64,000 nt of DNA, from contig NC_091325.1 of the NCBI RefSeq assembly GCF_038502225.1, positions 31,746,107-31,810,106 on the forward strand, read 5' to 3'. Of this stretch, positions 6,240 to 60,787 are shown piece after piece. Numbering within the stretch: position 1 is the first letter of the stretch; every line of letters starts with the position of its first letter. The stretch is from Cherax quadricarinatus. Its lineage: Eukaryota; Arthropoda; Malacostraca; Decapoda; Parastacidae. The position numbers and the translations under genes were made by a program. The notes beneath the pieces were generated by a model. The model searched no databases, had not been told where the DNA came from, and saw nothing but the letters and a program-made list of their open reading frames with translations.

Positions 6240-6890
6240 TCACGGGGTTAGGTACATATCACCTGGGCAACATATTCAAATTTGTGTTCTGGAATATATA
6301 AACTTGGCAATTTTATAGTCAAAAAATACTGTTCATACTCTTAAAAAAAGAAATATTTTTCACAATAATACGTAACGTGTTCTTTGTCAGGCGAGCAATT
6401 GAACTTGTGCAAGAATAGCTTGTGTGAGGTGTTGTTACCTTCTCTGAGTGAGGTGTAAACTCAGGGTAACATGTACAACTTACTTATCTTGCCTCTTTTT
6501 TGGCCGGGTCACCATATGGAGAAGACCTGGGCCAGGATGTCGTCCTTAACGTACATTTACCTCCCTCTTCTTATTCAGTCGAATCAAGACAGGCGCATGG
6601 AGGCGCATGGCTTCTTCCGATAGGAAGACGTCACGATGTTCCACAGACTCAACTGAGGACCCGGATTTGGAAATGTGGGGTGCACAATTCTTGCGAAGAA
6701 TCTGGAAGACCACTCACTGCACACTTGGGACAACGAAGCAAGCGACATCAGCCGAGCCAGTGAGATAGGGATGGATCAAGAAATTCTCATCCCAACACCA
6801 GATATACTGGATGGAGAAAGTTGGCAGGTAGCAGGAGCCACGAAGTCCCAGAGGAGACACAATGTTACCATTCCTCAGATAGTGTAAGCC
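6240..6890. other. Uncharacterised spacer, possibly 5' part of the zinc-knuckle ORF1
   Basis: The first 200 bases are AT-rich and featureless. From about 6490 base composition becomes more balanced, with short frames such as STDPDLEMWGAQFLRRIW that could be the degraded start of the following retrotransposon ORF1. I see no RNA gene or other feature. Confidence 0.35.
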
Positions 6891-10250: not shown

Positions 10251-10265
10251 TTTACGGTGAAGCAT

Positions 10266-10612
10266 TGTAGATGAATGGTTCAGTGAACCGACACGTTGAT
10301 AAATTAGACACATGTGCAACTCTTGGGTATCTTTACTGAGGAAACATTTCGCCACACAGTGGCTTCATCAGTCCATACAAAGGAGAAATGTGAAGAACAG
10401 GAGATTGAGGTAATTAGTCCCTCAACCTTGAGTCGATGTGGTCAATCCAGTCCATTGATGGACTGACCACATCGACTCAAGGTTGAGGGACTGATTACCT
10501 CATTCTCCTGTTCTTCACGTTTCTCCTTTGTATGAACTGATGAAGCCACTGTGTGGCGAAACGTTTTCTCAGTAAAGATACCCAAGAGTTGCACATGTGT
10601 CTAATTTATCAG
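10266..10612. mobile_element. Palindromic hammerhead-like element P1
   Basis: This is a 347-bp near-perfect palindrome. The right arm reads CTGATGA, then A, stem GCCAC-TGT-GTGGC, then GAAACGTTTT (10,541-10,570 region), followed by AAAGATACCC and GTTGCACATGTGTC; the left arm is its inverse. It is flanked by CGGTGAAGCAT at 10255-10265 and 10613-10623 (11-bp duplication). The left end carries an extra unpaired tail with the hairpin GGTTC-AGT-GAACC. CTGATGA-stem-GAAAC is the hammerhead ribozyme core layout, known from Penelope-like elements. The extra A after the core and the missing clear stem III make cleavage activity uncertain. Confidence 0.8.
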
Positions 10613-11401
10613 CGGTGAAGCATAGAGTAGAACATTATTTAGATAACAGTAAAGATGAGTTCAGTGCATATATGGAATGGGAAAAGGCATGTTTCTGGGT
10701 GGATAGAGAAGCAATGAGGCAAATATTGCAAATGTATGGAATAGGTGGCAGGTTACTGAAAGCAGTTAAGACTTTTCAGGAGGACAGTGAGGCCCAGGTT
10801 AGAGTATATAGAAGAGAGGGAGATTGTTTTCAAGTAGAAGTAGACCTTAGACAGGGATTCATGGTGTAACCAAAGCTGTTCAATAAATTTATAGATAGGA
10901 TTGTAAAAGAAATTAATCCTAGTGTGTTGGCAAGAAGTGTGAGATTAAAAGATGAAGAACATAACACAACGGGGGAGTTGTCATAAAAGCTTTTTGCTGA
11001 TGATTCTGTGCTTTTGGGAGATTCTGAAGAGAAGTTGCAGAGATTTGTGGATGAGTTTGGTAGGGTATGAAAAAGAAGGAAATTAAAAGTGAACATAGAA
11101 ATAAGCAACGTGATGAGGATAGTAAAAAAATTGTAAGTAATGAAGGATTGGATATCAGATTGGAGAGAGGGAATATTGGGGAAGAGAATGTATTCAAATA
11201 TTTTGGAGTGGACTTGTCAGCAGATAGGATTGTAAAAGACGCGGTGAATCATAGAACTGATGAAGGGGAATAAGGGGTTGGAACACTGAGGAGAATATGG
11301 AGACAAGTAACATTATCCATGGAAGCAAACAGTGGAATGTATGAGAGTATAGTAGCACTACGGGTCTGATATGGGTGTGAAGCATGGGTAGTGAATGTTG
11401 C

Positions 11402-12801: not shown

Positions 12802-13746
12802 ATGTGGAATAGCTAGGTTAAGCTATCATAGCTAGGCCACAGTTAGGAACCAGTTTAACAAAGTTAGGTTAAGCTATCATAGCTAGGCCACAGGTTAAGC
12901 TATCATAGCTAGGCCACAGTTAGGAACCAGTTTAAAAAAGTTAGGTTTAAGTTAGCACACCTAGGTCAAAGTTACTCAGAGGCTAGGCCAAGCTGACTAT
13001 ACACAGAAGTTGTTATTTGCAGTAATTTACAGGCAGGCCAGGTAGGCTAGAGAAGCTTGTGAATTTAATTATTTACAGTGATTACAAGTAATCCAGAGTA
13101 GGAGACTTGTGTGTTAATTACTTACAGTGGATTTGCAAGGTAGCCACAGTTAGGCTAGGCCTGTGCAATATTTACAAAAGGTTATAGTAGCTAGGACAGA
13201 TTTAACCTAGTTATTATTTACAGGGAGTTATAAAGCCAGGTTTAAGTTATAGCACACTAGCTAGGTTAGGATTTACCTTATCCAACCATCCACGCTAAAC
13301 AGAGTAAGCTGGGCACAGTTAGGCCAAGCTGTTTACATACATTATTTATTTACTGTTTCACAAGTTGAATTGTTGAATTTGCTTGTGTTAACCAAGTGAT
13401 TTTAATTTGTATACTGCCCTATTAGTGTGTGATTTTCATTGTCTTTGATTCATGTTAATGTGGGATTTGTGAATTATACCTGAGACTAGGTTAAGTCCTG
13501 TAATTATTTGCTGGCATTGTACAGTTAAGTGCTAGGTTAAGCTTTCACATCGATACACATTTTGATTGGGATTTGAGAGCTAACAGTGTACATTTTTGAT
13601 TCATAGTAGAGTCAATATAACAAAGGGAATTGTTAAGCTTGTTGAGAAGCCTTAAGACTCGTTCATTCTTACCTAACACCGTGACGTGCTGTGGGGTGGA
13701 CTGGGTAAAGTACAATTAGTGTCACACTCCTCATTAAACTTCGACA
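12802..13746 (+). other. BEL/Pao leader with short tandem repeats
   Basis: This is an untranslated leader of about 945 bp. It contains three imperfect copies of a unit with GGTTAAGCTATCATAGCTAG between 12,818 and 12,920, and many further CTAGGTTAAG/GTTAGGCC-like words. Many short stops in all frames leave the ATG at 13,747 as the first long-frame start. Confidence 0.7.
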
Positions 13747-16700
13747 ATGGCAGATGGGGGTTCAGGAGAGTCTGGTTCAGTGCTAACAAAATTAAAACGA
13801 TCAGTAGCAGCATACAAAGGGCATCTGAACAGAACGCGTAACAGGTGCAAGGCTACTTGCCAACGCAGTAATGTAGACTGCGATGATTTGCAGAACTGCT
13901 TGAAGAGTTTGGGGGAAAAGTGGGAAGCCTATGAACAAGCATTCACAGCATATGAGCTACAGGCTATTGAGGATGAGGAATCCCAGGGAAGTCTTCAGCA
14001 GGCTATGGACGAATTCACTAAGGATGATGTAGATTGTCATCAGGAGATGAATATGTACAAAGATAAGTTAAGTACATTAAAGGCTAGTATTCCAAGGATG
14101 GTGTTGAACACCGCAGGTACCCCAAACAACCACACACCTGTCAATATGTTGCCCAAGTTGCCCCAGCTGAATTTACCAACGTTTGACGGAACCTTAACAG
14201 AGTACATTGGTTTCTGGGATCAGTTTAGAGCCCAGATAGATGACAGAAATGATTTGTCAGATGCCGTCAAGTTGCAGTATTTGCGGTCGCAACTCAAGGG
14301 TAAAGCCTTAGATCTGGTCCGGCACTACCCGATTACTGACGCTAATTATCAACATGCCAAAGACCAATTAGAAGACATGTTTGGCAACACTGAGGAGATA
14401 AAGGTAGCTATACTTTATCGGTTGTTGGATCTAGAGGCTTGCCGACATGACCGTCAAAGTCTAGAGAAGTTCCGTATTGAGGTTATGAGCTTGTCCAATA
14501 GTTTCAGAGATTTGCATGATGAGAATGATTCAAAATGGATCCTTAGCCAGGTGATTCAGAGGAAACTGGCTAGCACGACAGTGCATGAGTTACACTTAAA
14601 ACATCGGACGAATAGGTTCACGATAGACCAAATTGTTGAAGGGTTAGGGGATCTCATATCTCACCTGAGCATAGGTCAGGGGGAGAAATTACCTACCAAG
14701 GAGAAGTCGGTCGACTTCCCCAGACATTCGAGAGATAGACCTAAACCACCTCCCACTAAAGTAGGCACGTATTATGCCCAGGGCGAACCCTCCACCCACA
14801 GGGCCAAGGGAGAAGCCACTAAAGCGGCCAGTATGAGACGGTGCGTGTTTTGTGATGAAGAACACGCTAGTTCAGGGTGTTCAAGCTTCACCACCTATAA
14901 CCAAAGGGTTCAACGGCTAAGAGAGTTGAGACTTTGTTTCAAGTGTTGTGGAGAACATTTTGCCAGGGACTGTAACACCATGCTCAGGGAGTGTCGGGGC
15001 TGCCGGAAGGGAAAGCACCACAGTGCACTGTGTCCTAATGATGCCGGATTAGCACAAGTTAAGGAGAGCAAACCGCAAGAAAGGGCGGAGAGCAAGAACA
15101 AGTCAGAAGTAACGATGAGTGTGGTGAGTACGGCACCGAGAATTTGTTCTGGTGAGCAATTTCAAGGCTCGGTGGCCTTGCCCACCATAATGGCGGTGGT
15201 CGCGAACGGGAAGAAGTCTGAAACAACCCGTTTGTTCTTCGACAGTGGGGCACAGAGATCCTTCATAGCGGAGAGTCTAGCCACTAGGTTGAAGCTGGAG
15301 ACAGTTGGTAAAGTTGACATGAAGGTGGAAGGGTTTGGTGGGGAAGTCCCACGCAGGTCTTATCCAGTAGTCAATGTGACGGTCAGGTTAGCCGGGCATC
15401 GACGGGAAATTTCAGCCTTGATGGTGAAGAGGCTGCCCAATATCATTACCACTAGGGGACTGGCTGAAGCAGTCAAACGTTTGAGGGAGTTGGGTGTGAA
15501 GCTAGCAGAACCAGACATTGCTACAGACAATGTTAGTAATGTAGGCATATTGGTAGGAGGGGATTACCTAGACGAGTTCGTGTCTACGAGAAGGGTTATC
15601 AAGGAAGGTGTGGGCCTGTACAGGACTCCAGCGGGGTACATCGTAGGAGGCAGAATATCAGCTCACTTCCCTGCGACCCCGGGAAAGGAGGGCTCTGGTA
15701 TTACAGCGACTGAGGCTGTACTGGTGATGCAGATTGGTGTGCACGAAGGCCTGTCAGAGGCGCAAGTTGGCATATCCGACAGTGAGCCGGTCCATAAACT
15801 ATGGGACCTGGATGTAGTAGGGATTAAAGGTGACCAGCCGCCCCCCGAACACGAAGAGACGTATCGAGATTACTTGAACCATGTGCAGTTCAGGGACGGG
15901 CAGTATTGGGTGCGACTCCCATGGAAACCGGGCCACCCAACGCTGCCCACTAATTTCAAGAGGGCACGTGGTCAGTTGAATTCATTGGTGAACAGCCTGA
16001 CCAGGAAGGGTCTGGTGGGGAAATATGATGATATTATTAAGGAACAGCTGGGCCTTGGGTTCATCGAGAAAGTGCCCAATGCCAGCCCTGGGGAAAACAC
16101 CCATTATCTTCCACACATGGCAGTCACCAAGGAGTCGGTAACCACTCCCATCAGAGTAGTCTTCAACTGCAGCTCGCAGGCGAGTCCCCGAGAGCCATCG
16201 TTGAACGACTGTCTGCTCACAGGGCCCTCCCTGACGCAGAAATTAGCAGATGTGTTGTTGAGATTCAGGACGGAACAGTACGCCTATGCGGCAGACATTA
16301 GCAAAGCCTTCCTACGTATTGGGTTGCAGCCACAGGATAGGGACTACACAAGGTTCTTGTGGCTGGCTAACAGGGAGATGCCCAAGCAAGGGTATGATAC
16401 CTATAGATTCAGGGCAGTGTTGTTTGGTGCCACTAGTTCACCATTCCTATTACAGGCTACCATAGACTACCACCTTGTGAACTGTAACAGCCCGCTTAAA
16501 GAATTACTGAAGACCCTATTTTATGTAGACAACATGCAGGGTACCACCTCAGATGAAAGGCTGTTGATGGATATTTACCGAGAGTCTAATCAGGAGATGC
16601 TCTCAGCTAACATGCCATTGAGAGAATGGGTGACAAACAATCCAACGTTGCGGGGCATGGTGGAACATGACTATACTGGCTACTCAGTGCCTGAGGTAAC

Positions 16701-19194
16701 ATCGGTGTTGGGACTAGAGTGGGAAGTCAAGGAAGACAGACTTAGGCTAAAGAGGAAGCCTGATGGGGAAGGGAAGCTGACCAGGAGGTCTTTGCTGAGC
16801 AAAGTGCAGACTGCCTTCGATCCTTTGGGTTTGTTGACACCCATCACCATTCGAGGGAGGATGCTAGTACAACAGACCTGGGAGCTGAACCTAGGTTGGG
16901 ACGACCCACTGCCAGAAACAGTCTGCCAGGAGTGGGATCTGGTTAACAAAGACCTAGCGGAATTGCACGAGTTCACATTCCCCAGGTCCATCGGGTGCAC
17001 CGGGCGGGATTATGACTTGCACGTCTTTTGTGATGCCTCCTCCAGGGCCTATGGGGCAGTAGCGTATCTGGTGGCCGGGGACCAAGTCAATCTGGTCACC
17101 AGTCGTGCGCGGGTGACACCCCTGAAGGATTGCTCGATCCCAAAGCTAGAGCTCACAGCGATGTTGCTGGGAGCAAGACTGGGTAAGTACGTAGAGGAGG
17201 TGTTAAGTAATCTGAGGGTGACACACACCTATGTATGGACAGACTCGGAGGTGGCCTTACAGTGGGTCCAGAATGACAGGTCTAAGCTCCCCTATGTCAG
17301 GAATCGGGTAAAGGAGATACGGGAACTACAGTCAACGTCAACAATTCTGTATGTGCCTACAGATCAAAACCCAGCCGACCTGATAAGCCGAGGGGTGACA
17401 CACAGAAAGTTGAGTAAAAGCGAGCTTTGGTTCAAAGGCCCAGACTGGTTACCGGCAAGGGATTGCTGGCCGGAGCAGAAATTCGTGGAGACAATCAGCA
17501 GCATAGTACATTTCGCGGGGGAACACGACACTGAATTATTTGACCCCAGGCGCTACTCCTCGTGGAGAAAACTTATAGGAGTCACGGAAATGGTATTTCG
17601 ATTCGTGAGGAAGCTGCATGACAAGGTAAGCCAGGGTCGACAGTTGTCTCTAGTGGGTCCCAGAGAATATTGGATAAGGCAGTACCAAAGGGGGAGGTTT
17701 CCAGGAGTGCTGGAAGTACTTGCGACCCGGCAGCAGGTTATGGCCTCAGGACGCGTGTCCAACGATGACGACTCAGGGAACAGCAAATTGGTTCACTCAT
17801 TGGGATTGTTCCTAGATCATGCGGGGCTAATAAGATGCAGGGGAAGAATACAAAACTCTGAGCTCAGCTATGGGGCCAAACATCCCGTGCTGCTGGGAAA
17901 GGAGGGATGGGCGACAGAGCTATTGATACAAGATGCCCATCAGAGGACCTTACATGGGGGGTTTGGAGATACCCTCACCTGCCTAAGTCAGAATTACTGG
18001 GTACTGAAGGGTCGAGCTGCCGTCAAAAGGGAGCTAAAGAGTTGCACGGTCTGCCGGCGGTACGATGGGAGGACCCTACCCTACCCAGGTCCACCACCGC
18101 TGCCTCAGGAGCGGGTACATAGTGACAGGCCCTTTGAGACTGTAGGAATAGACTATACGGGGGCTATCACATTGAAGAACCCAGGAGACGTTAAGGAGGG
18201 CCCTCAGAAAGTATATGTCTGCCTGTTTACCTGTGCCACTACTCGAGCGGTGCATTTGGAGTTGGCAGAAGATATGACGACAGAGACTTTCGTGAAGTTG
18301 TTCAGGAGGTTTACTGCCAGATTCTCGTGCCCGCGATTGATTATCTCGGACAATGGCACAAGCTTTAGGGGGGCCGATAAAGTTTTCAGGAATCTTAGGG
18401 ACAACGGAGAAGTACGAGAACACCTGAAGAGAATAGAGTGCGAGTGGAGGTTCATAGCTCCCAGGGCACCCTGGCAAGGGGGATTCTATGAACGCATGGT
18501 GGGCACAGTCAAAAGGTGCATTCGGAAGGTCTTGCACGGCAGGAGGGTGAGCTGTGATGAACTGAGGACAGTGTTAGTTGAGATAGAGGCAAGAGTTAAT
18601 AACAGGCCTCTGACCTACGTACAAAATGGGATTGACGAGCAAGAAGCTCTCACCCCCAATCACATGCTGTTTGGAAGAAGAATTGAGCCCTTCCCCGCAA
18701 TTTTGAGTCAGTCTTCCAAGGAGCTGGATTATTATGGGCCAGATGGTCCCCCCATCAATGAAGAACTGCACAGGAGTCACAACAGACTGGTGAACATCCT
18801 GGACAAATGGAACCAGGTGTGGCGAAGGGATTACTTGACAACCTTGCGAGAACATTTCTATGGTGCCGACCCCGAGGCGAATAAGATGATGCTAAGTGAA
18901 GGGGACCTGGTGCTGGTAGAATCCGAGGCACCGAGGGCATACTGGCCTCTTGGCCTGGTAGTGTCAACCCACCCAGACAAGGCTGGGCGGTTGAGAATGG
19001 TGAAAGTGAGAATGAACGGTGTCGAGACTATAAGACCCATCAACAGGCTTTTGCCTCTCGAGGTCCACACGGTGGGACTGGGACATGAGAAATCAGACCA
19101 GAGGTTGAGCGAGCTGAGCGGCCGGACGACCCGTCGAACGGCGCTCGAGTCCAGGGCCCACTGGGGGGGCCTGCGGGAGGCAGACTTGATCTAG
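13747..19194 (+). CDS. BEL/Pao gag-pol polyprotein
   Basis: One uninterrupted frame of 1815 residues encodes all structural and enzymatic parts of the element. Gag-like region: coiled N-terminus and a DUF1759-type segment (LPTFDGTLTEYIGFWDQFRA, about 145-165). A Cys/His zinc-knuckle array follows (about 365-435: RRCVFCDEEH, LCFKCCGEHFARDC, CRGCRKGKHHSALC). Aspartic protease: FFDSGAQRSF with catalytic Asp at residue 499. RT: first Asp in YAADISKAFL (850), FGATSSPF, and YVDN at 926-929 where YxDD is usual. RNase H: VFCDASSRAYGA (Asp 1096), KLELTA, WTDSEVALQW. Integrase: zinc site (HGGF ... CTVCRR), then GIDYTG (Asp 1469), SDNGTSF (Asp 1535) and FYERMVGTVK (Glu 1582). The C-terminal DUF5641-like block starts at LVLVES. 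The domain order PR-RT-RH-IN and the gag type define BEL/Pao. The ATG is the first in frame. Expression as one polyprotein from the 5' LTR is inferred. Confidence 0.96.
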   Translation: MADGGSGESGSVLTKLKRSVAAYKGHLNRTRNRCKATCQRSNVDCDDLQNCLKSLGEKWEAYEQAFTAYELQAIEDEESQGSLQQAMDEFTKDDVDCHQEMNMYKDKLSTLKASIPRMVLNTAGTPNNHTPVNMLPKLPQLNLPTFDGTLTEYIGFWDQFRAQIDDRNDLSDAVKLQYLRSQLKGKALDLVRHYPITDANYQHAKDQLEDMFGNTEEIKVAILYRLLDLEACRHDRQSLEKFRIEVMSLSNSFRDLHDENDSKWILSQVIQRKLASTTVHELHLKHRTNRFTIDQIVEGLGDLISHLSIGQGEKLPTKEKSVDFPRHSRDRPKPPPTKVGTYYAQGEPSTHRAKGEATKAASMRRCVFCDEEHASSGCSSFTTYNQRVQRLRELRLCFKCCGEHFARDCNTMLRECRGCRKGKHHSALCPNDAGLAQVKESKPQERAESKNKSEVTMSVVSTAPRICSGEQFQGSVALPTIMAVVANGKKSETTRLFFDSGAQRSFIAESLATRLKLETVGKVDMKVEGFGGEVPRRSYPVVNVTVRLAGHRREISALMVKRLPNIITTRGLAEAVKRLRELGVKLAEPDIATDNVSNVGILVGGDYLDEFVSTRRVIKEGVGLYRTPAGYIVGGRISAHFPATPGKEGSGITATEAVLVMQIGVHEGLSEAQVGISDSEPVHKLWDLDVVGIKGDQPPPEHEETYRDYLNHVQFRDGQYWVRLPWKPGHPTLPTNFKRARGQLNSLVNSLTRKGLVGKYDDIIKEQLGLGFIEKVPNASPGENTHYLPHMAVTKESVTTPIRVVFNCSSQASPREPSLNDCLLTGPSLTQKLADVLLRFRTEQYAYAADISKAFLRIGLQPQDRDYTRFLWLANREMPKQGYDTYRFRAVLFGATSSPFLLQATIDYHLVNCNSPLKELLKTLFYVDNMQGTTSDERLLMDIYRESNQEMLSANMPLREWVTNNPTLRGMVEHDYTGYSVPEVTSVLGLEWEVKEDRLRLKRKPDGEGKLTRRSLLSKVQTAFDPLGLLTPITIRGRMLVQQTWELNLGWDDPLPETVCQEWDLVNKDLAELHEFTFPRSIGCTGRDYDLHVFCDASSRAYGAVAYLVAGDQVNLVTSRARVTPLKDCSIPKLELTAMLLGARLGKYVEEVLSNLRVTHTYVWTDSEVALQWVQNDRSKLPYVRNRVKEIRELQSTSTILYVPTDQNPADLISRGVTHRKLSKSELWFKGPDWLPARDCWPEQKFVETISSIVHFAGEHDTELFDPRRYSSWRKLIGVTEMVFRFVRKLHDKVSQGRQLSLVGPREYWIRQYQRGRFPGVLEVLATRQQVMASGRVSNDDDSGNSKLVHSLGLFLDHAGLIRCRGRIQNSELSYGAKHPVLLGKEGWATELLIQDAHQRTLHGGFGDTLTCLSQNYWVLKGRAAVKRELKSCTVCRRYDGRTLPYPGPPPLPQERVHSDRPFETVGIDYTGAITLKNPGDVKEGPQKVYVCLFTCATTRAVHLELAEDMTTETFVKLFRRFTARFSCPRLIISDNGTSFRGADKVFRNLRDNGEVREHLKRIECEWRFIAPRAPWQGGFYERMVGTVKRCIRKVLHGRRVSCDELRTVLVEIEARVNNRPLTYVQNGIDEQEALTPNHMLFGRRIEPFPAILSQSSKELDYYGPDGPPINEELHRSHNRLVNILDKWNQVWRRDYLTTLREHFYGADPEANKMMLSEGDLVLVESEAPRAYWPLGLVVSTHPDKAGRLRMVKVRMNGVETIRPINRLLPLEVHTVGLGHEKSDQRLSELSGRTTRRTALESRAHWGGLREADLI

Positions 19195-20242: not shown

Positions 20243-20745
20243 AGCACCATGCACCATGCTTCCAGTTAACTTGGAAATGATTGTGTCGATGCATGGACTA
20301 TTTAGAGGCATATGTTATGGAAAAACAATGTGAAATTAATGTTAACGAGGGAGTGACCAGTCAGTGCATCCACCCCCACGTCACGGGGGTGGGTGGAAGA
20401 GGGCGGGATGTGTAACTGGATGTGTAACTAGATGGTAAGTGAACACATTGGTTCAGCAGTGCCCATACCCACATTGTTCATAGTGTACATGGGAAACAAA
20501 TAAAGTTATTGTGTATTGTAAGACAGTGTGAACAATATATAGTGCGCAAGTCCATGTGTATTGTACTTCCCGGGATAACCCCACTCAACAACCTGCGCCT
20601 CCCCCACCTAATTCCCAGGGGAAGTTTTCCCCTTCCCCTCCCGGCCCCTCAAACTCCACCAGGCCACCATGGTCAAGTTCACTACCTTCCACGCACCATA
20701 CCCACCCAGCATGTCATATTCCACTCCTATTGTCTAGTCTAGCAG
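20243..20745. other. LTR-like/5' UTR-like segment before the RLE LINE
   Basis: Features seen: a strong hairpin CCACCCCC-ACGTCAC-GGGGGTGG (20370-20392) whose loop contains a CRE-like ACGTCA, a duplicated TGTGTAACT(G/A)GATG, an AATAAA at about 20500 followed by a GT-rich stretch, then a C-rich segment up to the ATG at 20746. This could be the 5' UTR of the RLE LINE or an older solo-LTR end (about 20,400-20,575) fused to it; I cannot decide which. Confidence 0.35.
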
Positions 20746-23697
20746 ATGGATGCCAACCAGGAGGAAGCAAGCAGCCAGGGAAATGGCACGGTTGGCAATA
20801 CTAGGAGAGGCAAGTGTCGGTCATGCTTACAGCTTCGTTGTCTCAACTCGAATGGTTTCCTCCGCAAGCACGGTAGTTGCCCTGGTTCAGGATGTCCTCC
20901 TGTGGAAAGTGATGATCCAGAGCCACCTCAGGCACCTGAACCCTCACCAACAGATTTCATCTCATCAGACAATCTCTTGGAAGCAATTAAAGCAACTGGT
21001 ACCAGGACACTCACACATATTCCTAAAGCAGCCCGTCCACACGCAGTTGGGAAACTTACAGACCTCCTGAAAAAAGTAAACGATGGTTCCACTATCTTAA
21101 ATGCTCCACCAACCATCAAGGCATGGCACAACTTGCTACTTTTTGGCAATGTCTGCTTAGCTGTGCCGGAAAGAAGGGGAAAGAGGCTAGCCTCAATGAT
21201 AATTAAATCCTTAAGAGATTTTCCTAGAGTTGATAACCTCATTCGCCTTCCCCGTCAATACAAAAAAGGGAGAGGCAGAACCCCCACTCACTCTACTGAC
21301 AGTGAAAAAGTCAGAGTCCAGGTGAGCAAGAAAATTGAAGAGGGCAACACAGTGGAGGCAATAAGAATTATTACCAGTGAAGATACAGTTGCTCCCAGGG
21401 ATGCTGACACGGCTGAAGCACTTAGAGGAAAGCACCCTGCCAGGGAAACCAGTGGCACCAACAGTTCCAACACCTCTGTCCCCACTATGGAACCATTGAT
21501 AGTGGAAGACTCAGACATTTACAAAACAATAATGTCGTTCCCATCTGGCTCTGCTGGGGGTTACACTGGAATAAGGCCACATCATTTAAAGGAAATGGTT
21601 AATCCAGTTATTGGAGAAATTGCAGAGACACTGCTTTCAGAGATCACAAGGTTCGTCAACAATTCCTTGGCTGGTCTGATCCCTGATGAAATTAGACCTT
21701 TCTTTTTTGGTGCAACACTTTGTGCACTTAAAAAGAAGGATGGAGGAATTCGGCCAATTGCAGTAGGCAACACCTTACGCCGCCTCGTATCCAAAGCTGC
21801 TGTCCGAAGTATTCGTGCACAGGCAGCCATGATGCTTCAACCAAACCAGCTTGGCTTTGGGGTCTCTCAAGGAAGTGAAGCAGCGGTTCATGCAACAAGG
21901 GCGTATATCAACAACCTGCCTGAGGACAATGCAGTGGTAAAATTAGATTTCAAGAATGCGTTCAATCTCCTGAAAAGAGACGTGGTATTAGCAGCAGTAC
22001 AAGAACATTTCCCTGGTCTCTTCCCTTTTGTTTCAGCCGGGTATAGCAAGGAATCAATGCTTCTCTTTGGAGAGCATGAAATTACATCATCGGAGGGTGT
22101 CCAACAAGGAGATCCTCTTGCACCATTTCTCTTCTGTATAGCAGTTAGGGAAATCACAGTCAGACTGACCAGCGAGCTAAACATCTGGTTCCTAGATGAT
22201 GGCACACTAGCAGGTACAAAAGAGTCCCTCCTACATGACCTTACACAGGTAATGACACGGGGACAGGAAATGGGTCTCATCCTGAATCCATCCAAATGTG
22301 AAATCATCTCAGTCAGTCAACAAGTGATAAATGCAGTGAGATCAAAACTACCAGGAGCAGCAGTCATTGCCCCCACAAATAGTGTCTTGCTAGGAGCACC
22401 TCTGGGAAGCAATGCCATTGACACAATTCTCAGGAAGAAATTGAAAGAGTTAAGGAGAATGGAACAACGAATAGGCAATCTGGACACCCACGATGCCTTG
22501 TACCTTCTCACAAAGTGCTTGAGTCTGCCGAGGTTGACATATTTCCTAAGATGTGCACCTTCATATGATAACCCTATACTGCACGAATATGACAGTATTC
22601 TGAGGCAGATTTTTACGAAAGTACTTAACCTTACTCTAGAAGACGGGCAGTGGAACCAAGCTACACTTCCAGTCAGACTAGGAGGCATTGGTGTCCGCAA
22701 GTCATCACAGATTGCGTTACCTGCTTTTTTGTCCTCGTGTATTGCATCCAGAGAGCTTGTAGCAGCGATTCTCCCTGAACATCTTAGGGACAAGATAGGA
22801 GTCCAGGACCAAAAATTCATTGACGGAGCAATGATCTGGGATAATCTAACGGGCTCTGGAGCCAGACCTGCTCCCCCCAACAACTACAAACAATCGCACT
22901 GGGATGGTCCAATAGTGGAAAATATTGCCTCAACAATGCTTCAGAGTGTGTCAGGGAAGGATAGTGCCCGCCTCCTGGCAGTGAGAGCCCCTCATGCTGG
23001 GGACTTTCTGTTGGTTGTTCCCAACTCCAGCCTTGGCACACGTCTCGACCCACAGACCATCCGCATCGGTGTTGCCCTTCGACTTGCCGCCCCTATTCTC
23101 GCCGAACACAGGTGTATTTGTGGCAGTGAAGCAGCAGACCGATTCGGGTACCATGGTCTTGTGTGCCGTAAATCCGAGGGAAAGATTGCAAGACATGAGG
23201 AGGTTAATAACATTATCAAGAGGAGCCTCACAACAGCTGGATGCCCAGCAGTAAGGGAGCCACCCCAACTATGCAGATCTGATGGCAGCCAGAAGCGTCC
23301 AGATGGTATCACCCTTCAAGCCTGGACAGATGGGAAGCAGGTGGTGTGGGACTATACATGTGCATCTACCTTGGCTGATACCTATCTCCAATAAACCAGG
23401 GAGGAAGGAGGGGCAGCTGCCAGCTTCAGGGAGTCCCAAAAGTCTAGAAAATATGGAGAACTTGCCCATCATTATATGTTTGTTCCCATAGGCTCAGAGA
23501 CCCTTGGCTCATGGGGAAAGAGTGCATCTAAATTCCTTAAGGAGCTGGGAAAAAGACTCATCAGGGTAACTAGGGATCCTAGGGCAGCTAGTTTTCTGTT
23601 CCAGCGGCTCAGTGCGGCTGTTCAAAGGGGTAATGCCTGCTGTATTTTGGGCATACGCCCCAGCTCTGAGGAGCTGGATGAGATTTTCACCTTATAA
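20746..23697 (+). pseudogene. RLE-type LINE ORF (RT plus C-terminal restriction-like nuclease), one nonsense codon
   Basis: A single frame of 983 codons is broken only by TAA at 23,392-23,394 (codon 883). N-terminus: a Cys-rich finger (CRSCLQLRC ... HGSCPGSGCPP, about residues 25-52). RT: HHLKEMV, KKKDGGIRPIAVGNTLRRLV, KLDFKNAFN, GVQQGDPLAPF (451 on) and the active site FLDD (482-485). C-terminus: CIC ... YHGLVC zinc-binding pattern (from 790), RPDG (851-854) and WDYT (Asp 869), i.e. the PD...D signature of restriction-like endonucleases in R2/NeSL/Hero-type LINEs. After the stop the same frame continues with a strongly patterned domain (KYGEL, FVPIGSETLGSWG, RAASFLFQRLSAAVQRGNA) to 23,697. 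The older copy at 9.5 kb has TAC at the stop position, so the stop is a recent mutation. Clade within RLE LINEs is not determined. Confidence 0.88.
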
Positions 23698-23959: not shown

Positions 23960-24505
23960 AACCAAAGGAGGGAGAGAGGTCTCAGAGTAGCATAGGTGAT
24001 AAAAACTTTGTGTTACTTTATGCAAATTCGTGTTTGAAGGGAAATTCTATACTCAAAAACAAGGCATGGCAATGGGAAATCCCCTTAGCCCCTTACTCAG
24101 CAACCTATATATGGAATTCTATGAGACCAGATTTCTTAAAGACATTCTCCCAGATAAAGCTAGTTGGGTCAGATACGTAGATGATGTTCTCTGTCTGTGG
24201 CCTAATGATCACAACATTGATGAGTTTCTTCCCAGAATCATTGGCTTAGTACCTTCCATTAAGTTCACCACAGAACATGAAATAAATAACACTTTGCCGT
24301 TCCTAGATGTTTTAATCCATCGTGTCGATAGGAAATTCAAATTTCCAGTTTACAGGAAGTCCACCAACGTGTCGTCATACATTCACGAAACCAAGATAAA
24401 AAGGAGTGTGTTCCTCACAATGTTTCTGAGATCATTGCGCATCTGCAGTTCACAGTACCTAAAGGACGAAATCAGCAAGATATTCAACATAGCCACAAAA
24501 CTAAG
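23960..24505 (+). pseudogene. Penelope-like element RT fragment
   Basis: From about 24,020 the frame reads FEGKFYTQKQGMAMGNPLSP, LLSNLYMEFYE, WVRYVDDVLC (catalytic YVDD), LPFLDVLIHR and FPVYRKSTNVSSYIH. These are diagnostic Penelope-type RT blocks (GMAMGNPLSP and YRKxT). The upstream part (23,960-24,020) is frameshifted and the fingers are missing. The GIY-YIG endonuclease expected downstream is absent: homology stops at about 24,505, where a MITE-like repeat begins and supplies the last codons (YYKFLH). It is truncated and inactive. Confidence 0.88.

Positions 24506-25162
<657 letters not shown>

Positions 25163-25249
<87 letters not shown>
25163..25249. repeat. (TA)n microsatellite between M2 and M3
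   Basis: Nearly pure TA tract of about 87 bp. Confidence 0.97.
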
Positions 25250-25252
<3 letters not shown>

Positions 25253-25616
25253 GTGCAAAATAGGTAAAACTTGTGATTTTGGCTTAAATAGCAATGCTCT
25301 TCTTGCCGAATAAGGCAATGAAATATTTGTGTATGCAATAATTTCACAGAAATCATTCTGAACCTAACGAAAGCAATATATTTTATTGTTTAAACTTGTC
25401 TAAAATATATTTAGTTGGATTATGCTAAATTAAATTGTGCTTATTATAGTAAGGTTAGGTAAGTTTCCCAAGGGTGTTTTGGTACAACATTATTAATTTT
25501 TACATTAACATAAATGAAAAAAAACGAATAAGAGAATTTTTTAGAAAGGATTTAATTTTAAACGGGTTCTTGCAAAATGACTATTTTGTATATATGTGGT
25601 ACCTATTCGGCACGAC
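25250..25616 (-). mobile_element. MITE-like repeat M3, inverted relative to M2
   Basis: 367 bp, starting GTCGTGC and ending ACCTATTCGGCACGAC. The internal order is the reverse complement of M2 (for example aaatatatttagttgg against ccaactaaatatattt). It is followed by ATATATAC. Confidence 0.75.
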
Positions 25617-25867: not shown

Positions 25868-25880
25868 TAACGCAACACAT

Positions 25881-26508
25881 ACTCAAAAAACCCGCACATA
25901 AAAGAGAGAAGCTTACGACGACGTTTCGGTCCAACTTGGACCATTTACAAAGTCACACTAACCAGAAGTGGAGCAGGACGGCTATATATAGGCAGGAAGA
26001 GGTGGTGGTAGTAGTAGTAGCAGTAGTAGTAGTACAAGAATGGTATATAATACCGACAAGATGTAATTAAGACACATGCACAACACCCGGGCATCCCCAT
26101 CGTAGACGTTTCGCCATCCAGCCAGCCACTGGATGACGAAACGTCCACAACAAAGACAACCAGACGCCGCACATGTGTCTTAATTTCTTTGTTGTGGACG
26201 TTTCGCCATCCAGTAGCTGGCTGGATGGCGAGACGTCTACGATGGGGATGCCCGGGTGTTGTGCATGTGTCTTAATTACATCTTGTCGGTATTATATACA
26301 ATTCTTGTACTACTACTACTGCTACTACTACTACTACTACTACCACCACCTCTTCCTGCCTATATATAGCCGTCCAGCTCCACTTCTGGTTAGTGTGACT
26401 TTGTAAATGGTCCAAGTTGGACCGAAACGTCGACGTAAGCTTCTCTCTTTTATGTGCGGGTTATTTGTGTATCGTTCCAGTCACGGTATTGTGCCTTTTT
26501 ATGTTATT
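25881..26508. mobile_element. Palindromic hammerhead-like element P2 (two modules per arm)
   Basis: A 628-bp palindrome flanked by TAACGCAACACAT at 25868-25880 and 26509-26521 (13-bp duplication). Outer module, right arm: TTTGTAAAT, stem GGTCC-AACTT-GGACC inverted as GGTCCAAGTTGGACC, then GAAACGTC; the left arm is the inverse. Inner modules carry a different stem (CCATCCAG ... CTGGATGG) next to GACGTTTCG or its inverse. The arms also contain an imperfect trinucleotide stretch (GTAGTAGTA/TACTACTAC) and a CCCGGGTGTTG/TGTGCATGTGTC block shared with P1. The right end has an unpaired tail (about 26,464-26,508) with a small hairpin. Confidence 0.78.
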
Positions 26509-26521
26509 TAACGCAACACAT

Positions 26522-44804: not shown

Positions 44805-44877
44805 TTAAATTTCATTTTTCTTTTTTTTTTTTATGGTAATGCAAGGTTTTCTCCACAGTACCTCACAAGAAACTGCT

Positions 44878-45244
44878 GATAAATTAGACACATGTGCAAC
44901 TCTTGGGTATCTTTATTAAGGAAACGTTTCGCCACACAGTGGCTTCATCAGTCCATACACAGGAGAAACTTGAAAAACAGGAGGAGAATGAGGTAATCAG
45001 TCCCTCAACCTTGAGTCGATGTGGTCAGTCCATCAATCTTGAATAGAATAGATTGATGGACTGACCACATCGACTCAAGGTTGAGGGACTGATTACCTCA
45101 TTCTCCTCCTGTTCTTCAAGTTTCTCCTATGTATGGACTGATGAAGCCACTGTGTGGCGAAACGTTTCCTTAATAAAGATACCCAAGAGTTGCACATGTG
45201 TCTAATTTATCAACGTGTCGGTTCTGTGAACCATTCATCTACAT
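44878..45244. mobile_element. Palindromic hammerhead-like element P3
   Basis: A 367-bp palindrome closely related to P1. Right arm: CTGATGA-A-GCCAC-TGT-GTGGC-GAAACGTTTCC, then AATAAAGATACCC and GTTGCACATGTGTC. Flanked by GAAACTGCT (44869-44877) and GAAACCGCT (45245-45253), a 9-bp duplication with one mismatch; the F1 LINE reading resumes across it. The unpaired tail, with hairpin GGTTC-TGT-GAACC, is on the right end here, on the left in P1. Confidence 0.8.
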
Positions 45245-46330
45245 GAAACCGCTACAAAAGCAGGATTAACAGGAAAAGCCCTACAGTGGATTACATAATA
45301 GGAAAGAAACAATGAGTTATGGTACATGAGGTGTCGGAGTATGCTGAAGTGTCGAGTGGGGTTCCCACAAGGGTTAGTCCCATGGCCGATGCTGTTTCTT
45401 GCATATGAGAATGATTTGACAGAAGAGATAAGAGTGAATGGTGTCTCTGTTTGAAAACAACGTGAAACTAATTAGGAGAATACAAATTGATGAGAATCAG
45501 GTAAGACTATAAACAGATTAGGACAGGCTATCAGCCTGGTCTGATTAATGACTTTTGGAGTTTAATCCCACCAAGTGCAAAATCGTGAAACTTGGAGAAG
45601 GCCAAAGTAGCCCACAGACGGAGTACAGCCACTGGGGTCTAAGGCTGCAAACTTAACTCAAGGAAAAGAATTTTGGGGTGAGCATCACAACGAATCCATC
45701 CCTTGAGATGCACAAAACCAAATTACTGTTGTAGCATATGGGCGCCTGGTAAACCTAATAATACTATTTCTACATCTAATTAAGAAGTCATTTATGACAC
45801 TGTATTCTATATGCGTCAGTTCCATACTGGAATATGCAGCACCAGTGTGGAACACACACCAAGTGAAACACGTCAAGAAATTAGAAAAAGTGCAATTGAT
45901 TTGCAACAAGACTAGTCCTAGAGCAAATGGGAATGTCCTACAAGGAAAGGTTAATGGAACTCAAATTGTTGTCACTAGGGATAGGAGAGATAGGGGAGAA
46001 ATGATAACGACGTATAAAATACTGAGAGGAATTGACAAGGTGGAAAAGACAGGAATGTTTCAGAGATTCCACACAGGAACAAGGGGACACAACTGGAAGT
46101 TGAAAACTCAGATGAGCCAAAGAGATGTTAGGAAGTATTTGTTTAACCTCAGTGTTGTCAGGAAGTGTATCAATCTGGAGCGTGAAGTAGTGGAGGCAGG
46201 ATCCATACAGTGCTTTAAGAAGAGGTATGATAAAGCTCTTGAAGCTGGGAGAGGGTGGATCTATTAGCGAGTAGCGAAGAGGCGGGGCCAGGAGGTGTGA
46301 ATCGACCCCTGCAACCACAAACAAGGGAGT

Positions 46331-53788: not shown

Positions 53789-55699
53789 TAAGAACATAAG
53801 AAAGGAACACTACAACAGGCCTACTGGCCTATGCGAGGCAGGTCCAATTCTCCCACCGGCTTAAGCCAATGCTTTGACCTAGTCAGGTCAGTCACGTCAC
53901 TTAAGGGAGGAGCACGGCCTCCGACCTAGTAGCACAAGCTAGTCAGGTCCAACTCACACCCTCCCACACCCACTCATGTATTTACACAACCTATTTTTAA
54001 AACTACACAACGTCTTAGCTTCAATGACGGTACTCGGGAGTTTGTTCCATTCATTCCAGTGCTTTCTTATATCCTTCGTGAATCTGAATTTTTCCAATTT
54101 AAAGCCATTGCTGCGAGTCCAGTCTATGTTAGATATTTTCAGCACGCTATTTACATCCCCTTTATTAATTCCTGTTTTCCATTTACACACCTCAATCATA
54201 TCCCCCCTAATTCTATGCCTTTCTAGATAGTGCAGATTCAGGGCCCTCAGTCTATCCTCATAGGGAAGATTTCTGATACATGGGATCAACTTTGTCATCC
54301 TCCTTTGTACGTTTTCCAGAGCATTTATATCCATTCTGTAATACGGTGACCAGAACTGAGCAACATAATCTAAATGAAGCCTAACCAATGATATATAGAG
54401 TTGTAATAAAGTTGGTAGAATTACCGACAATATGTAAAGTAAAAGGACACAAGTGCAACTAATGTGACATTTATTGTGGCAACGTTTCGCTCTCCAGGAG
54501 CTTTATCAAGCCATTGAATGGCTTGATAAAGCTCCTGGAGAGCGAAACGTTGCCACAATAAATGTCACATTAGTTGCACTTGTGTCCTTTTACTTTACAT
54601 ATATAGAGTTGAAGAACAACCTGAGGACTTCTATTATTTATACTTCTTGCTATGAAGCCAAGGATTCTGTTAGCTTTATTGCGAACACTAATGCACTGTT
54701 GTCTTTGTTTCAGATTACTGCTAATCAGAACTCCTAAATCCTTTTCGCAATCAGTAATAATAAGATCTTCATTATTTAATTTATATGTGGCATGGTTATT
54801 TTCCTGTACAACATTTAGAACTGTGCATTTGTCTATACTAAACTGTATGTGCCACTTCTCTGTCCATTGATTTAATGTCCTCATTAGAATGAATTGGACG
54901 GCCTATTTTGGTGTCATCAGCAAATTTGCTTATGTCGCTGTTTATTCACTCATCTATGTCGTTTATGTAAATTGTGAACAACAACGGGCCCAATATTGAC
55001 CCCTGTGGAACACCGCTTGTGACGTGCCCCCATTCTGATTTCTCCCCATTTATGCAAAGTCTCTGCTGCTTATTTGTCAACCGGGCCTCTACCCAGGAAA
55101 AAAATTCTCCTATTCCGTGTGCCTTAAGTTATCTTAATAGCCTCTGATGTGGAACTCTATCGAAAGTCTTTCTGAAGTCCATATACACAATATCATATTC
55201 AATACTATGATCTACCTCCTCAAATACCTTAGTGAAGAAAGTTAGTAAATTCATAAGACAGGAACGCCCCTTTGTAAGACCGTGTTGAGATTCATTAATC
55301 AATTTATGCCCTGTAAGATGGCTACGAATTGCTTCGGCAATTATTTATTCCATAAATTTACCAACTATTGGTCTATAGTTTGAAGCTATGGACCTATCAC
55401 CTGGCTTGTAACACAGGTATTACATTTGCAATTTTCCACTTGTCTGGCACAATGCCAATTTGTTGTGATATATTGGAAAGATTAGCCAAAGGTTTGCTAA
55501 GTTCCTCTTTACATTCCCTTAACACCCTTGCAAACAGTTCGTCAGGGCCTGGGGATTTGTAGGTTTTAATTTCTCAATTTGTCTGAGGACAATAACACTA
55601 GTTACCCTAATTATGCATGGTTTGTTATCGTCTTGTTCTATACATTTTATTATTTCTGGAATTTCGCTAGTATCTTCCTGAGTAAAAACTGAGAGGAAG
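53789..55699 (-). pseudogene. Family-3 (F3) LINE, RT and 3' end (minus strand), part 1
   Basis: Minus strand. The 3' tail at 53,789-53,815 ends with ATAAGAACATAAGAA complement-type repeats (TTCTTATGTTCTTAT). RT blocks read on the minus strand: ALTNCLQGC region, [56 protein letters not shown] (about 54,900), WHIQFSIDKC, CEKDLGVLISSNLK, then LVRLHLDYVAQFWSP and the C-terminal domain (NVQRRMTKLIPCIRNLPYEDRL) to about 53,954. It is CR1-like by motif, with many stops. It contains the P4 insertion (54,404-54,598) and is split by an F2 insertion at 55,700. Confidence 0.85.
54404..54598. mobile_element. Palindromic hammerhead-like element P4
   Basis: A 195-bp insertion flanked by ATATATAGAGTTG at 54391-54403 and 54599-54611 (13-bp duplication). 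It is an almost perfect hairpin around 54,515. Right arm: CTTGATAA, stem AGCTC-CTGG-GAGCG-type, GAAA (54544-54547), then ACGTT (54547-54551) and AATGT (54561-54565), which can pair as a 5-bp stem III directly before C (54566). The core is degenerate (CTTGATAA for CTGATGA). The left end carries the unpaired tail. The disrupted F3 RT reads through cleanly when the insertion and one duplication copy are removed. Confidence 0.82.
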
Positions 55700-57811: not shown

Positions 57812-58395
57812 AAGTAGGTGCTCAAAAGTTCACACATTTCCTTATCACTGTCAGTGATCTGACCTGAGTTGCTCTTAAGTGGGCCTATCTTATCCCTAAT
57901 CTTACTTCTATATACCTGAAAGAATCCTTTCTTGTTTTTCTTATTCCTTTTTATATTTCTCTCTTTAATTGAATATATTGATTTCTTAACTGCATTTCCC
58001 CTCTTTTGATACGCTTATATATGCCTCTCTTTTGACCAATGAGATATTTTAATCTATTGTTTATCCATTTGGGATCCTTTTTGCTAGATCTAATATCTAC
58101 TTGGCACAAAAGTCGTCGGGCAGCCAGCACTATGCTCTGAAATACGTCATACTGGCAACCAAGATCATCTACCTGACCCATAGTCAGATCATCCCAATTT
58201 AGCCCACCCAGGTAATTTCTCAGTCCCATGAAGTCGGCCAAGTGGAAATCTGGGACAGAGACTTGATTGCAGTTATCTGGGTAATTCTATGATATATTGA
58301 AACTAAGTGATATGTGATAGCTTTCCTCTAACTCATCATTAACCACAAGATTATTACTAGTGACTCTTTGTCGGCAAGAACCAAGTCAAGCAGGT
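57812..58395 (-). pseudogene. F3 LINE, part 2: EN C-terminus and EN-RT linker
   Basis: Minus-strand continuation of F3 beyond the F2 insertion. From 58,395 downward: NLLDLVLADKESLV (end of EN), SVPDFHLADFMGLRNYLGGL, VFQSIVLAARRLL, KKDPKWINNRLKYLIGQKRGIYKRIKRGE (58,100-58,000) and MCELLSTY up to the junction, where FLSVFTQED continues on the other side at 55,690. AAG is present at both junctions. The element is 5' truncated near 58,395, where the older F1' sequence resumes. Confidence 0.82.
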
Positions 58396-59875: not shown

Positions 59876-60787
59876 CATACCTGGAGGCTACCTGGAGGTT
59901 ATTCCGGGGATCAATGCCCCCGCGGCCCGGTCCATGACCAGGCCTCCCGATGAATCAGGGCCTGATCAACCAGGCTGTTACTGCTGGCCGCACGCAGTCC
60001 AACGTACGAGCCAGAGCCCGGCTGATCCGGCACTGACTTTAAGTATCTGTCCAGCTCTCTCTTGAAGGCAGCCAGGGGTTTATTGGCAATTCCCCTAATG
60101 CTTGATGGGAGGCTGTTGAACAGTCTTGGGCACCGGACACTTCTGGTGTTTTCCCTTAGTGTACCAATGGCGCCCCTACTTTTAATTGGGGGCATTTTGC
60201 ATCGCCTGCCCAGTCTTTTACTTTCGTAGGGAGTGATTTCTGTGTGCAGATTTGGGACCATTCCTTCCAGGATTTTCCAAGTGTAGATTATGATATATCT
60301 CTCCCTCCTGCATTCCAACGAGTACAAGTCGAGTGCTTCCAAGCGTTCCCAGTAGTTAAGGTGCTTGACAGAACTTATACGTGCAGTAAAGGATCTCTGT
60401 ACACTCTCTAGATCTGCAATTTCACCTGCTTTGAATGGAGATGTTAATGCACAGCAGTATTCCAGCCTAGAGATAACAAGTCATTTGAAAAGGATCATCA
60501 TTGGCTTGGCATCTCTCGTTTTGAACGTTCTCATTATCCATCCTATCATTTTCTTTGCACGTGCGATCGTGGCACTGTTGTGATCTTTGAAAGTGAGATC
60601 CTCAGACATTACTACTCCCAGGTCCCTTACATTATTTTTCCGCTCTATTGTATGGCCAGAGTCTGTAGCTTACTCTGTTCTAGTTATTATCTCCTCCAGT
60701 TTTCCATAACGGAGTAGTTGGAATTTGTCCTCATTGAACATCATATTGTTTACCGTTGCCCACTGGAAAACTTTGTTTATATCTTCT
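59876..60787 (-). pseudogene. F2 LINE copy b, 3' half (minus strand)
   Basis: Minus-strand copy of the F2 RT C-terminal half plus 3' tail, very similar to copy a. Blocks: MMFNEDKFQLLRYGKLEEII (60,745-60,690), NVRDLGVVMSEDLTFKDH, then the C-terminal domain in an open frame 60,342-59,911 that ends ... FKRELDRYLKSVPDQPG and continues through LRAASSNSLVDQALIHREAW to a stop. Here the Tyr codon lost in copy a is intact. The 3' end is AACCTCCAGGTAGCCTCCAGGTATG. Truncated at its 5' end at atatcttct (60,787). Confidence 0.88.

What the first reader, a model, noticed from the sequence alone, without database searches (positions are those of the whole stretch)
10266..10612. Dispersed palindromic elements built from inverted hammerhead-like modules with covarying stem II
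Seen: four insertions (10,266; 25,881; 44,878; 54,404) are near-perfect palindromes whose arms carry the layout [C]TGATGA-like, stem-loop, GAAACGT. Stem II differs in sequence but pairs in each family: GCCAC/GTGGC (P1, P3), GGTCC/GGACC (P2 outer), CCATCC/GGATGG (P2 inner), GCTC/GAGC (P4). Different bases with preserved pairing point to selection on RNA or ssDNA structure. Known: hammerhead ribozymes occur in Penelope-like elements (and small 'retrozymes'), normally as tandem direct copies. Inference: these are non-autonomous Penelope-dependent elements organised head-to-head, so one transcript holds a ribozyme and its antisense. That arrangement is, to my knowledge, not a standard described form.
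Basis: partly seen in the sequence, partly recalled or inferred. Interest (0 to 1): 0.88.

Follow-up and report, generated by a model that had tools for sequence, protein, structure and literature searches.

The report
Head-to-head Penelope retroelement ribozyme palindromes
These four DNA palindromes look like pieces of Penelope-type jumping genes, three of them with a self-cutting RNA motif, and copies from across the genome indicate that such palindromes are made afresh at insertion, probably because both ends of the cut chromosome start copying the element's RNA.

Summary
The four palindromes are real, at the stated places. Each lies between target-site duplications (three exact, 11-13 bp; P3 9 bp with one mismatch) and has a one-sided tail of 30-39 nt: the published anatomy of inverted pseudo-LTRs (pLTRs) of Penelope-like elements (PLEs). 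P1, P3 and P4 carry a minimal type I hammerhead motif on each arm. One copy from each of five families keeps stems I and II paired in 35 of 35 cells, and the core 3-8 pair alternates C-G/U-A. P2 is weaker: its outer arms miss the core consensus, and its inner 'stem II' is an inversion junction.

The head-to-head arrangement is not new. Genome copies bear on an open question, how PLEs make it. Of 41 palindromes (P1, P3, 39 fetched), 39 have one tail, 37 a duplication (6.8% with mismatched flanks), and 30 distinct centres occur. Arms resemble their partner arm (1608 site patterns against 40 and 41). Related longer units carry a TATA box 29-33 nt before the point where the longest arms stop. Three of 39 elements pair arms from two subfamilies. 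The palindrome is therefore made at insertion, best explained by reverse transcription primed from both target ends. A pLTR-to-ORF link and ribozyme activity were not shown.

The parts
10255..10265 (.). P1 target-site duplication, left copy (CGGTGAAGCAT)
10266..10297 (-). P1 one-sided 32-nt tail
   Evidence: compare PLE tail
10298..10449 (-). P1 tail-bearing pLTR arm (reads on the minus strand)
10340..10374 (-). P1 left-arm hammerhead motif (GAAATGTT variant)
10459..10612 (+). P1 tail-less pLTR arm
10534..10568 (+). P1 right-arm hammerhead motif
10613..10623 (.). P1 target-site duplication, right copy
25868..25880 (.). P2 target-site duplication, left copy (TAACGCAACACAT)
25881..26508 (+). P2: family F5 inverted pair carrying two copies (inverted to each other) of an older nested hairpin B; nested copies roughly 26050-26172 and 26183-26310 (read by eye)
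26409..26431 (+). P2 right-arm stem II and GAAACGTC; core and stem I diverged from hammerhead consensus
26470..26508 (+). P2 one-sided tail (about 39 nt)
26509..26521 (.). P2 target-site duplication, right copy
44869..44877 (.). P3 target-site duplication, left copy (GAAACTGCT, one mismatch to right copy)
44878..45039 (-). P3 tail-less pLTR arm
44920..44954 (-). P3 left-arm hammerhead motif
45050..45211 (+). P3 tail-bearing pLTR arm
45135..45169 (+). P3 right-arm hammerhead motif
45212..45244 (+). P3 one-sided tail (33 nt)
45245..45253 (.). P3 target-site duplication, right copy (GAAACCGCT)
54391..54403 (.). P4 target-site duplication, left copy (ATATATAGAGTTG)
54404..54433 (-). P4 one-sided tail (30 nt)
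54434..54598 (.). P4 two pLTR arms, head to head, meeting near 54516
54478..54512 (-). P4 left-arm hammerhead motif with U3-A8 core pair
54520..54554 (+). P4 right-arm hammerhead motif with U3-A8 core pair
54599..54611 (.). P4 target-site duplication, right copy
24003..24572 (+). Remnant of a Penelope-type reverse transcriptase (separate insertion)
   Evidence: RVT_1 4.4e-07; relatives P0001 and P0008 continue into a GIY-YIG-like motif, motif names recalled

Best explanation
The palindromes are ORF-less insertions of Penelope-like element (PLE) pseudo-LTRs. An RNA starts about 30 nt after a TATA box in the pLTR and runs through a minimal hammerhead into the tail region. The PLE enzyme cuts both target strands with a stagger. 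Both freed 3' ends prime reverse transcription of such RNAs: one starts at the outer site (tail included), the other about 30 nt further in (no tail). Both cDNAs run towards the RNA's 5' end and are joined head to head there, often at an inverted microhomology, and the stagger becomes the target-site duplication. The palindrome is thus made at each insertion and is not itself the replicating unit. Shown: anatomy, duplications, tail rule, common source of the two arms, diverse centres. Inferred: RNA start, PLE enzyme, priming from both ends. Not shown: ribozyme cleavage.
For: 41 palindromes (39 fetched plus P1 and P3; L043/L044 are duplicates, L055/L056 probably): one tail in 39, two tails in 2, duplications in 37, against 111 of 1,636 when flanks of different copies are paired. 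Arms coalesce within the element: 1608 site patterns within element, 40 by side, 41 crossed over 741 pairs of 39 elements; within-element identity .972 against .957 shuffled, 0 of 10,000. 30 distinct left/right junction extents of 41, either arm the longer (24/16, 1 equal), same furthest reach on both sides; an overlap of exactly 4 nt in 9 of 41, 1.8% in the null. Related longer copies place a TATA box 32-33 nt before the F1 head and 29 nt before the F2 head. Three of 39 elements (L036, L048, L054) join two complete subfamily haplotypes; 18 discordant diagnostic cells against 2.9 expected. In a published in vitro system a PLE protein cuts and extends both strands and starts at two sites that bound the tail (PMC11167929). 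Among the 136 scored RT places, 13 of 13 clusters are head to head.
Against: No copy was seen in which these pLTRs run into a PLE ORF: 150 scored F5 tail peptides of 59,307 candidates lie in open frames of 34-318 aa, and letters around the long RT ORFs could not be fetched. 22 of 39 elements have identical diagnostic haplotypes on both arms, against 18% expected for independent templates, so either the two templates usually come from one source or many palindromes arise by self-priming. The discordance test rests on five sites chosen after seeing the data: the two T/A sites are strong (P 0.0002 each), the A/C site has P 0.005, and the A/G and C/T sites are weak (0.02, 0.07); later gene conversion could also make discordant arms. 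The commonest junctions (TCAA/TTGA) would also fit snap-back self-priming. Four elements share one junction. In the Anolis system ribozyme mutants did not change insertion and no reads began or ended at the cut, so the hammerhead may not matter for insertion.
Confidence: 0.65

Rival explanations
1. Snap-back self-priming: one cDNA, primed at the target, folds back at its 3' end and copies itself, giving the second arm. Self-priming, on an antisense template, is the reading favoured in PMC3846280.
For: Arms are near-identical within elements; 9 of 41 centres overlap by the 4 nt TCAA/TTGA; 22 of 39 elements have identical diagnostic haplotypes; the Adineta authors favour self-priming.
Against: Needs a special stop to end the second arm at the pre-tail site (39 of 41 have one tail); cannot give arms from two subfamilies (L036, L048, L054); P4's centre is a single base between paired arms (sequence).
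Confidence: 0.25
2. The palindrome is a replicating unit in its own right: a palindromic RNA or DNA is copied whole, carrying ribozyme and antisense together.
For: Four elements (L031, L034, L035, L046) share one junction and nearly identical arms; with the junction letters included, 75 by-side against 33 crossed patterns, an excess I attribute to these four without having tested it.
Against: No left or right lineages outside the junction: 40 by-side and 41 crossed against 1608 within-element patterns; 30 junction types of 41; in P2 an older hairpin (own arms 38 of 56 identical) was copied twice (98 of 101 identical) inside a younger palindrome.
Confidence: 0.07
3. Foldback DNA transposon (MITE) with terminal inverted repeats that happens to contain hairpins.
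For: Inverted repeats and duplications.
Against: One-sided tail, duplications that vary in length, variable centres, direct tandem units within the arms of L067, longest arms that stop at a TATA-spaced site.
Confidence: 0.02
4. Assembly or chimera artefact.
For: Palindromes are hard to assemble; no reads were available to check.
Against: 37 of 41 have matching duplications in their own flanking DNA, against 6.8% for mismatched flanks; arms differ by private changes.
Confidence: 0.01

Closest known systems
Inverted pLTRs of Penelope retrotransposons (Adineta vaga Pen families, PMC3846280)
   Same: Head-to-head inverted pLTRs, junction palindromes, 31-bp tail at one end, 8-10 bp duplications, TATA box in the pLTR, solo pLTRs and foreign sequence captured between pLTRs.
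   Different: Here the two arms abut with no ORF between them in P1, P3, P4 and the 39 fetched copies, and candidates number in the thousands; that paper reports very low copy number.
Poseidon PLE of Anolis carolinensis with hammerhead (PAc, PMC11167929)
   Same: [quoted passage not shown] tail bounded by two RT start sites; both strands cut and extended.
   Different: No ORF found joined to these pLTRs; palindromic products are not described in parts 1 and 2 of 4, which is what I read.
Metazoan non-LTR retrozymes (PMC7229834)
   Same: Short tandem units with type I hammerheads; L067 has a 378-nt unit in this size range (passages).
   Different: Minimal PLE-type hammerhead, PLE-like tail and TATA box in the unit, head-to-head array; window copies are not tandem.
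Dimeric hammerhead variants of PLEs (Lunse et al.; only seen as a cited title and a review's remark, paper not held)
   Same: Very short stem III (ACGU) that would need a dimer (my reading).
   Different: Not read; activity untested here.

Membership tests
Penelope-like element insertion | pLTRs in inverted head-to-head or tandem arrangement | tested here: met
   P1-P4 and 39 fetched copies; L067 has inverted and tandem units
Penelope-like element insertion | Optional 30-40 bp tail at one end | tested here: met
   39 of 41 one tail, 2 of 41 two tails; 30-39 nt in P1-P4
Penelope-like element insertion | Target-site duplication (8-10 bp in Adineta) | tested here: met
Penelope-like element insertion | Hammerhead motif in the pLTR | tested here: met
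   P1, P3, P4; not P2
Penelope-like element insertion | RT plus GIY-YIG ORF joined to the pLTR | tested here: inconclusive
   None in the palindromes; RT places with frames to 886 aa elsewhere in the genome; no join seen in 150 scored F5 tails
Hammerhead ribozyme (minimal type I) | Core C3-U-G-A-N-G-A9 and GAAA with stems I and II | tested here: met
   P1, P3 consensus core; P4 with paired change to U3-A8. Not met in P2 outer arm
Hammerhead ribozyme (minimal type I) | Compensatory changes in stems | tested here: met
   5 family representatives, 35 of 35 cells, 1 of 120 permutations reaches this; 5 of the 10 copies were not used: one identical in these cells to F1, four that are diverged copies, two of which (F5 in the window and in L075) do not pair in stem I
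Hammerhead ribozyme (minimal type I) | Rfam covariance model above gathering score | tested here: not met
   the motif has no looped stem III
Hammerhead ribozyme (minimal type I) | Self-cleavage | not testable with these tools
   Needs in vitro transcription
Metazoan retrozyme | Tandem 150-450 bp units with a type I hammerhead | tested here: met
   Only for L067 4600-6303, 378-nt unit; not met by P1-P4
Metazoan retrozyme | Canonical loop-loop tertiary contacts, circular RNA | not tested
   No RNA data
Foldback DNA transposon / MITE | Defined terminal inverted repeats and duplication of fixed length | tested here: not met
   One-sided tail, variable duplications and centres

The most novel reading that the evidence does not exclude
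PLE integration is a two-ended reaction: both sides of the staggered cut prime reverse transcription of RNAs, one at each of the two known start sites, and two cDNAs, sometimes from two different source loci, are fused at their RNA 5' ends. The numerous ORF-less head-to-head palindromes of this genome would be the natural footprint of it, and a short copy whose right arm starts at the first base after the predicted hammerhead cut (L083) would show that cleaved RNA is sometimes the template.
Probability: 0.5. Interest if true: 0.75.

Novelty: new variant of a known kind. Interest (0 to 1): 0.55.

Why it matters
How Penelope-like elements come to be flanked by inverted pLTRs is left open in the papers I saw (PMC3846280 Discussion; PMC11167929, which calls the later steps yet to be validated). 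This genome holds many short, complete products of that reaction with clear ends, centres and source subfamilies, so competing models can be told apart by sequence. The 378-nt promoter-hammerhead-tail unit in L067 also links ORF-less PLE derivatives with the retrozymes of animals, for which PLEs are a suspected mobiliser (PMC7229834 passages).

Tried and rejected
A viral-contig scan for the core layout gave 19 matches to a 16-base pattern, which I take as chance level by a rough estimate and did not inspect. Four longer patterns gave none, and one scan of prokaryote genomes gave none. The Rfam miRNA-type hits on P1 and P4 are the long hairpins; every hit listed there is below its gathering score. 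A P1-only paired change in stem I (GAA/TTC) looked like covariation, but each half also occurs singly in other copies, so it is not used. The dimer fold was computed for eight arms: both P3 copies and the F5 right copy pair through the ACGU region between molecules, the other five do so only partly or not, so it proves nothing. Reciprocal nearest neighbours within elements were only 2 of 22; subfamily members are nearly identical, and the site-pattern test is used in its place. The head sequence used contains guessed letters at its far 5' end, and later mutations shorten some extents there; the observed mean overlap is -1.7 against 0.8 in the null for that reason, and the null assumes uniform breakpoints. 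Between elements, right-right identity (.9591) is slightly above left-right (.9563), left-left (.9535) below it.

Rows dropped before counts: L044 (duplicate of L043) in the pattern count and; L044 and L056. keep all 41. In one search five of the ten copies were permuted, one per family; F4 is represented by L023, which reads GAAACGAT. The window's F5 copy and L075's F5 copy do not pair in stem I, L027's copy has wobbles and L083's F4 copy one mismatch in stem I; these four and the L067 F1 unit were left out. In one search the queries included pieces of L067 and L083 themselves, and an F2 inverted pair 925 bp apart (L089) was counted as two one-strand loci. The pair-order count covers only the 136 best-scored RT places.

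Full report
OBSERVATION. P1 is 10266-10612, P2 25881-26508, P3 44878-45244, P4 54404-54598. Three are bracketed by exact duplications of 11, 13 and 13 bp (P1, P2, P4); P3 has 9 bp with one mismatch (GAAACTGCT/GAAACCGCT). Each has 30-39 extra nt at one end only, outside the inverted pair.

HAMMERHEAD. P1 and P3 arms read GRA-CTGATGA-A-GCCAC-TGT-GTGGC-GAAAYGTT-TYC, P4 arms GGC-TTGATAA-A-GCTC-CTGGA-GAGC-GAAACGTT-GCC. Hammerhead numbering is recalled. Stem III could only be ACGU without a loop; PLE hammerheads are described as minimal versions lacking helix III (PMC6155905 passages). With copies from elsewhere in the genome I distinguish five families: F1 (P1/P3), F2 (P4), F3 (L024), F4 (L023), F5 (P2 outer arm; L067 at 7714). 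Taking one copy each, stems I and II are paired in 35 of 35 cells, and only the true pairing of 120 permutations of the 3' halves reaches that. The core 3-8 pair is C-G in F1 and F4 and U-A in F2, F3 and F5. This pair is a known contact: a double mutant partly restores PAc cleavage. Against this: Rfam models stay below threshold; F5 copies in the window and L075 do not pair in stem I; F5 has U at position 6; the F4 copy reads GAAACGAT; activity is untested.

PENELOPE ANATOMY. In Adineta, PLEs have head-to-head inverted pLTRs, a 31-bp tail optional at one of them, duplications of 8-10 bp, palindromes at the inverted junction, and solo pLTRs (PMC3846280, passages and Discussion). In the Anolis PLE the protein cuts and extends both strands, reverse transcription starts at two adjacent sites, and the tail is the stretch between them (PMC11167929, parts 1 and 2 of 4). 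The window elements fit these points. That paper also reports that ribozyme mutants did not change insertion in vitro. A separate Penelope-type RT remnant lies at 24003-24572.

GENOME COPIES. The window's genome is held (3.95 Gb). A P1 search scored 40 places of 4,265 first-look candidates; all 40, P1 included, match on both strands. I fetched the other 39 and added P1 and P3. Of these 41, 39 have one tail and 2 (L034, L060) have tails at both ends; 37 have a duplication at the script's threshold, against 111 of 1,636 (6.8%) when flanks of different copies are paired. This set is biased to palindromes by the query. In 24 stretches of 10 kb taken at one fixed position on each of 24 large contigs (212,847 readable bases), 18 pLTR loci of these families were found, 5 with both strands. 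One of the five (L067) is a large inverted tandem array, and two (L089, L091) are overlapping hits on the two strands of short segments that I did not examine; queries included pieces of L067 and L083 themselves.

PALINDROMES ARE MADE AT INSERTION. Over 741 pairs of 39 elements, sites where each element's two arms agree with each other but differ between elements number 1608; sites that follow the arm side number 40, crossed sites 41. Between elements, left-left identity is .9535, left-right .9563, right-right .9591. With junction letters included, in the first 21 elements, the counts are 506, 75 and 33; the side excess I attribute, untested, to four elements with one shared junction. The centres differ: 30 distinct extent pairs of 41. 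P2 gives independent support: a hairpin B whose own arms agree at only 38 of 56 positions lies in both arms of a younger palindrome, and its two copies agree at 98 of 101, so the outer event copied it twice.

THE ARMS RUN FROM A PREDICTED RNA START. L067 4600-6303 is a head-to-head array of a 378-nt unit, two on the minus strand then three on the plus strand, with an 8-bp AATAAAAG duplication at 4591 and 6300 and a tail only on the right. The unit contains TATATAAG 33 nt before the head sequence near which the longest F1 arms stop; L083 and L086 give 32 and 33 nt; an F2 copy (L089) gives 29 nt. Run-off at the RNA 5' end would explain the centres. The TATA box itself is not in the palindromes, so this is inferred from related copies. 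Shorter arms exist (L083 near 6506-6577 and L075 6533-6570). The L083 right arm begins at the first base after the predicted hammerhead cut, a single case.

ONE OR TWO TEMPLATES. Five diagnostic subfamily sites give 18 discordant cells in 39 elements where 2.9 are expected from private changes. L036, L048 and L054 each join two complete known haplotypes. Of the other 14 discordant elements 13 differ at one site, which new mutation could explain. 22 of 39 are concordant, against 18% for free mixing. So two templates probably occur, usually from the same source; self-priming cannot be excluded for the rest.

RT-BEARING ELEMENTS. A search with P0001 scored 136 places of 52,058 candidates, with open frames up to 886 aa. 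Among these 136, thirteen clusters hold neighbours within 6 kb; all thirteen include opposite strands and all are minus-then-plus, head to head (10 '-+', 2 '-++', 1 '--++'). The same geometry therefore holds for RT-bearing elements. A direct pLTR-ORF link is missing: 150 scored F5 tail peptides of 59,307 candidates lie in frames of at most 318 aa.

PRIOR WORK. In the listings of seven searches of the paper library and the passages I read, I found no description of ORF-less head-to-head PLE palindromes as an abundant class, nor a test of arm ancestry. The library lacks the two main papers on PLE hammerheads (Cervera and de la Pena 2014; Lunse et al.), so this absence is weak. Host: not named by any search; a decapod crustacean is my recollection from repeat sequences only.

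Noticed in passing
13738-19194 +: Uninterrupted 1818-aa BEL/Pao-type frame (Peptidase_A17, DUF1759, Integrase_H2C2).
   Followed up: partly
20743-23394 +: 883-aa frame with a reverse transcriptase domain, LINE-like.
   Followed up: no
24510-24899 and 25023-25389: Two further palindromes centred on long (TA)n runs with GTCGTGC-type borders; relation to the PLE palindromes unknown.
   Followed up: no
56903-57812 / 59878-60787: 910-nt inverted repeat, 97% complementary, 2 kb apart, in LINE-type RT sequence.
   Followed up: no
L067 4600-6303: Head-to-head array of a 378-nt promoter-hammerhead-tail unit (two minus, three plus), retrozyme-like.
   Followed up: yes
L083 6498-6618: Short palindrome with a 12-bp duplication (TCTTTGAATCTG); its right arm starts at the first base after the predicted hammerhead cut.
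   Followed up: partly
L089 6052-7171: F2 inverted pLTR pair 925 bp apart with a captured LINE RT fragment between.
   Followed up: partly
L031, L034, L035, L046: Four copies share one centre and nearly identical arms; either a recurrent junction or a palindromic source.
   Followed up: no
L043 / L044 (C65 near 1.82 and 2.13 Mb): Same insertion with the same duplication twice on one contig, in opposite orientation: probably a host segmental duplication.
   Followed up: no
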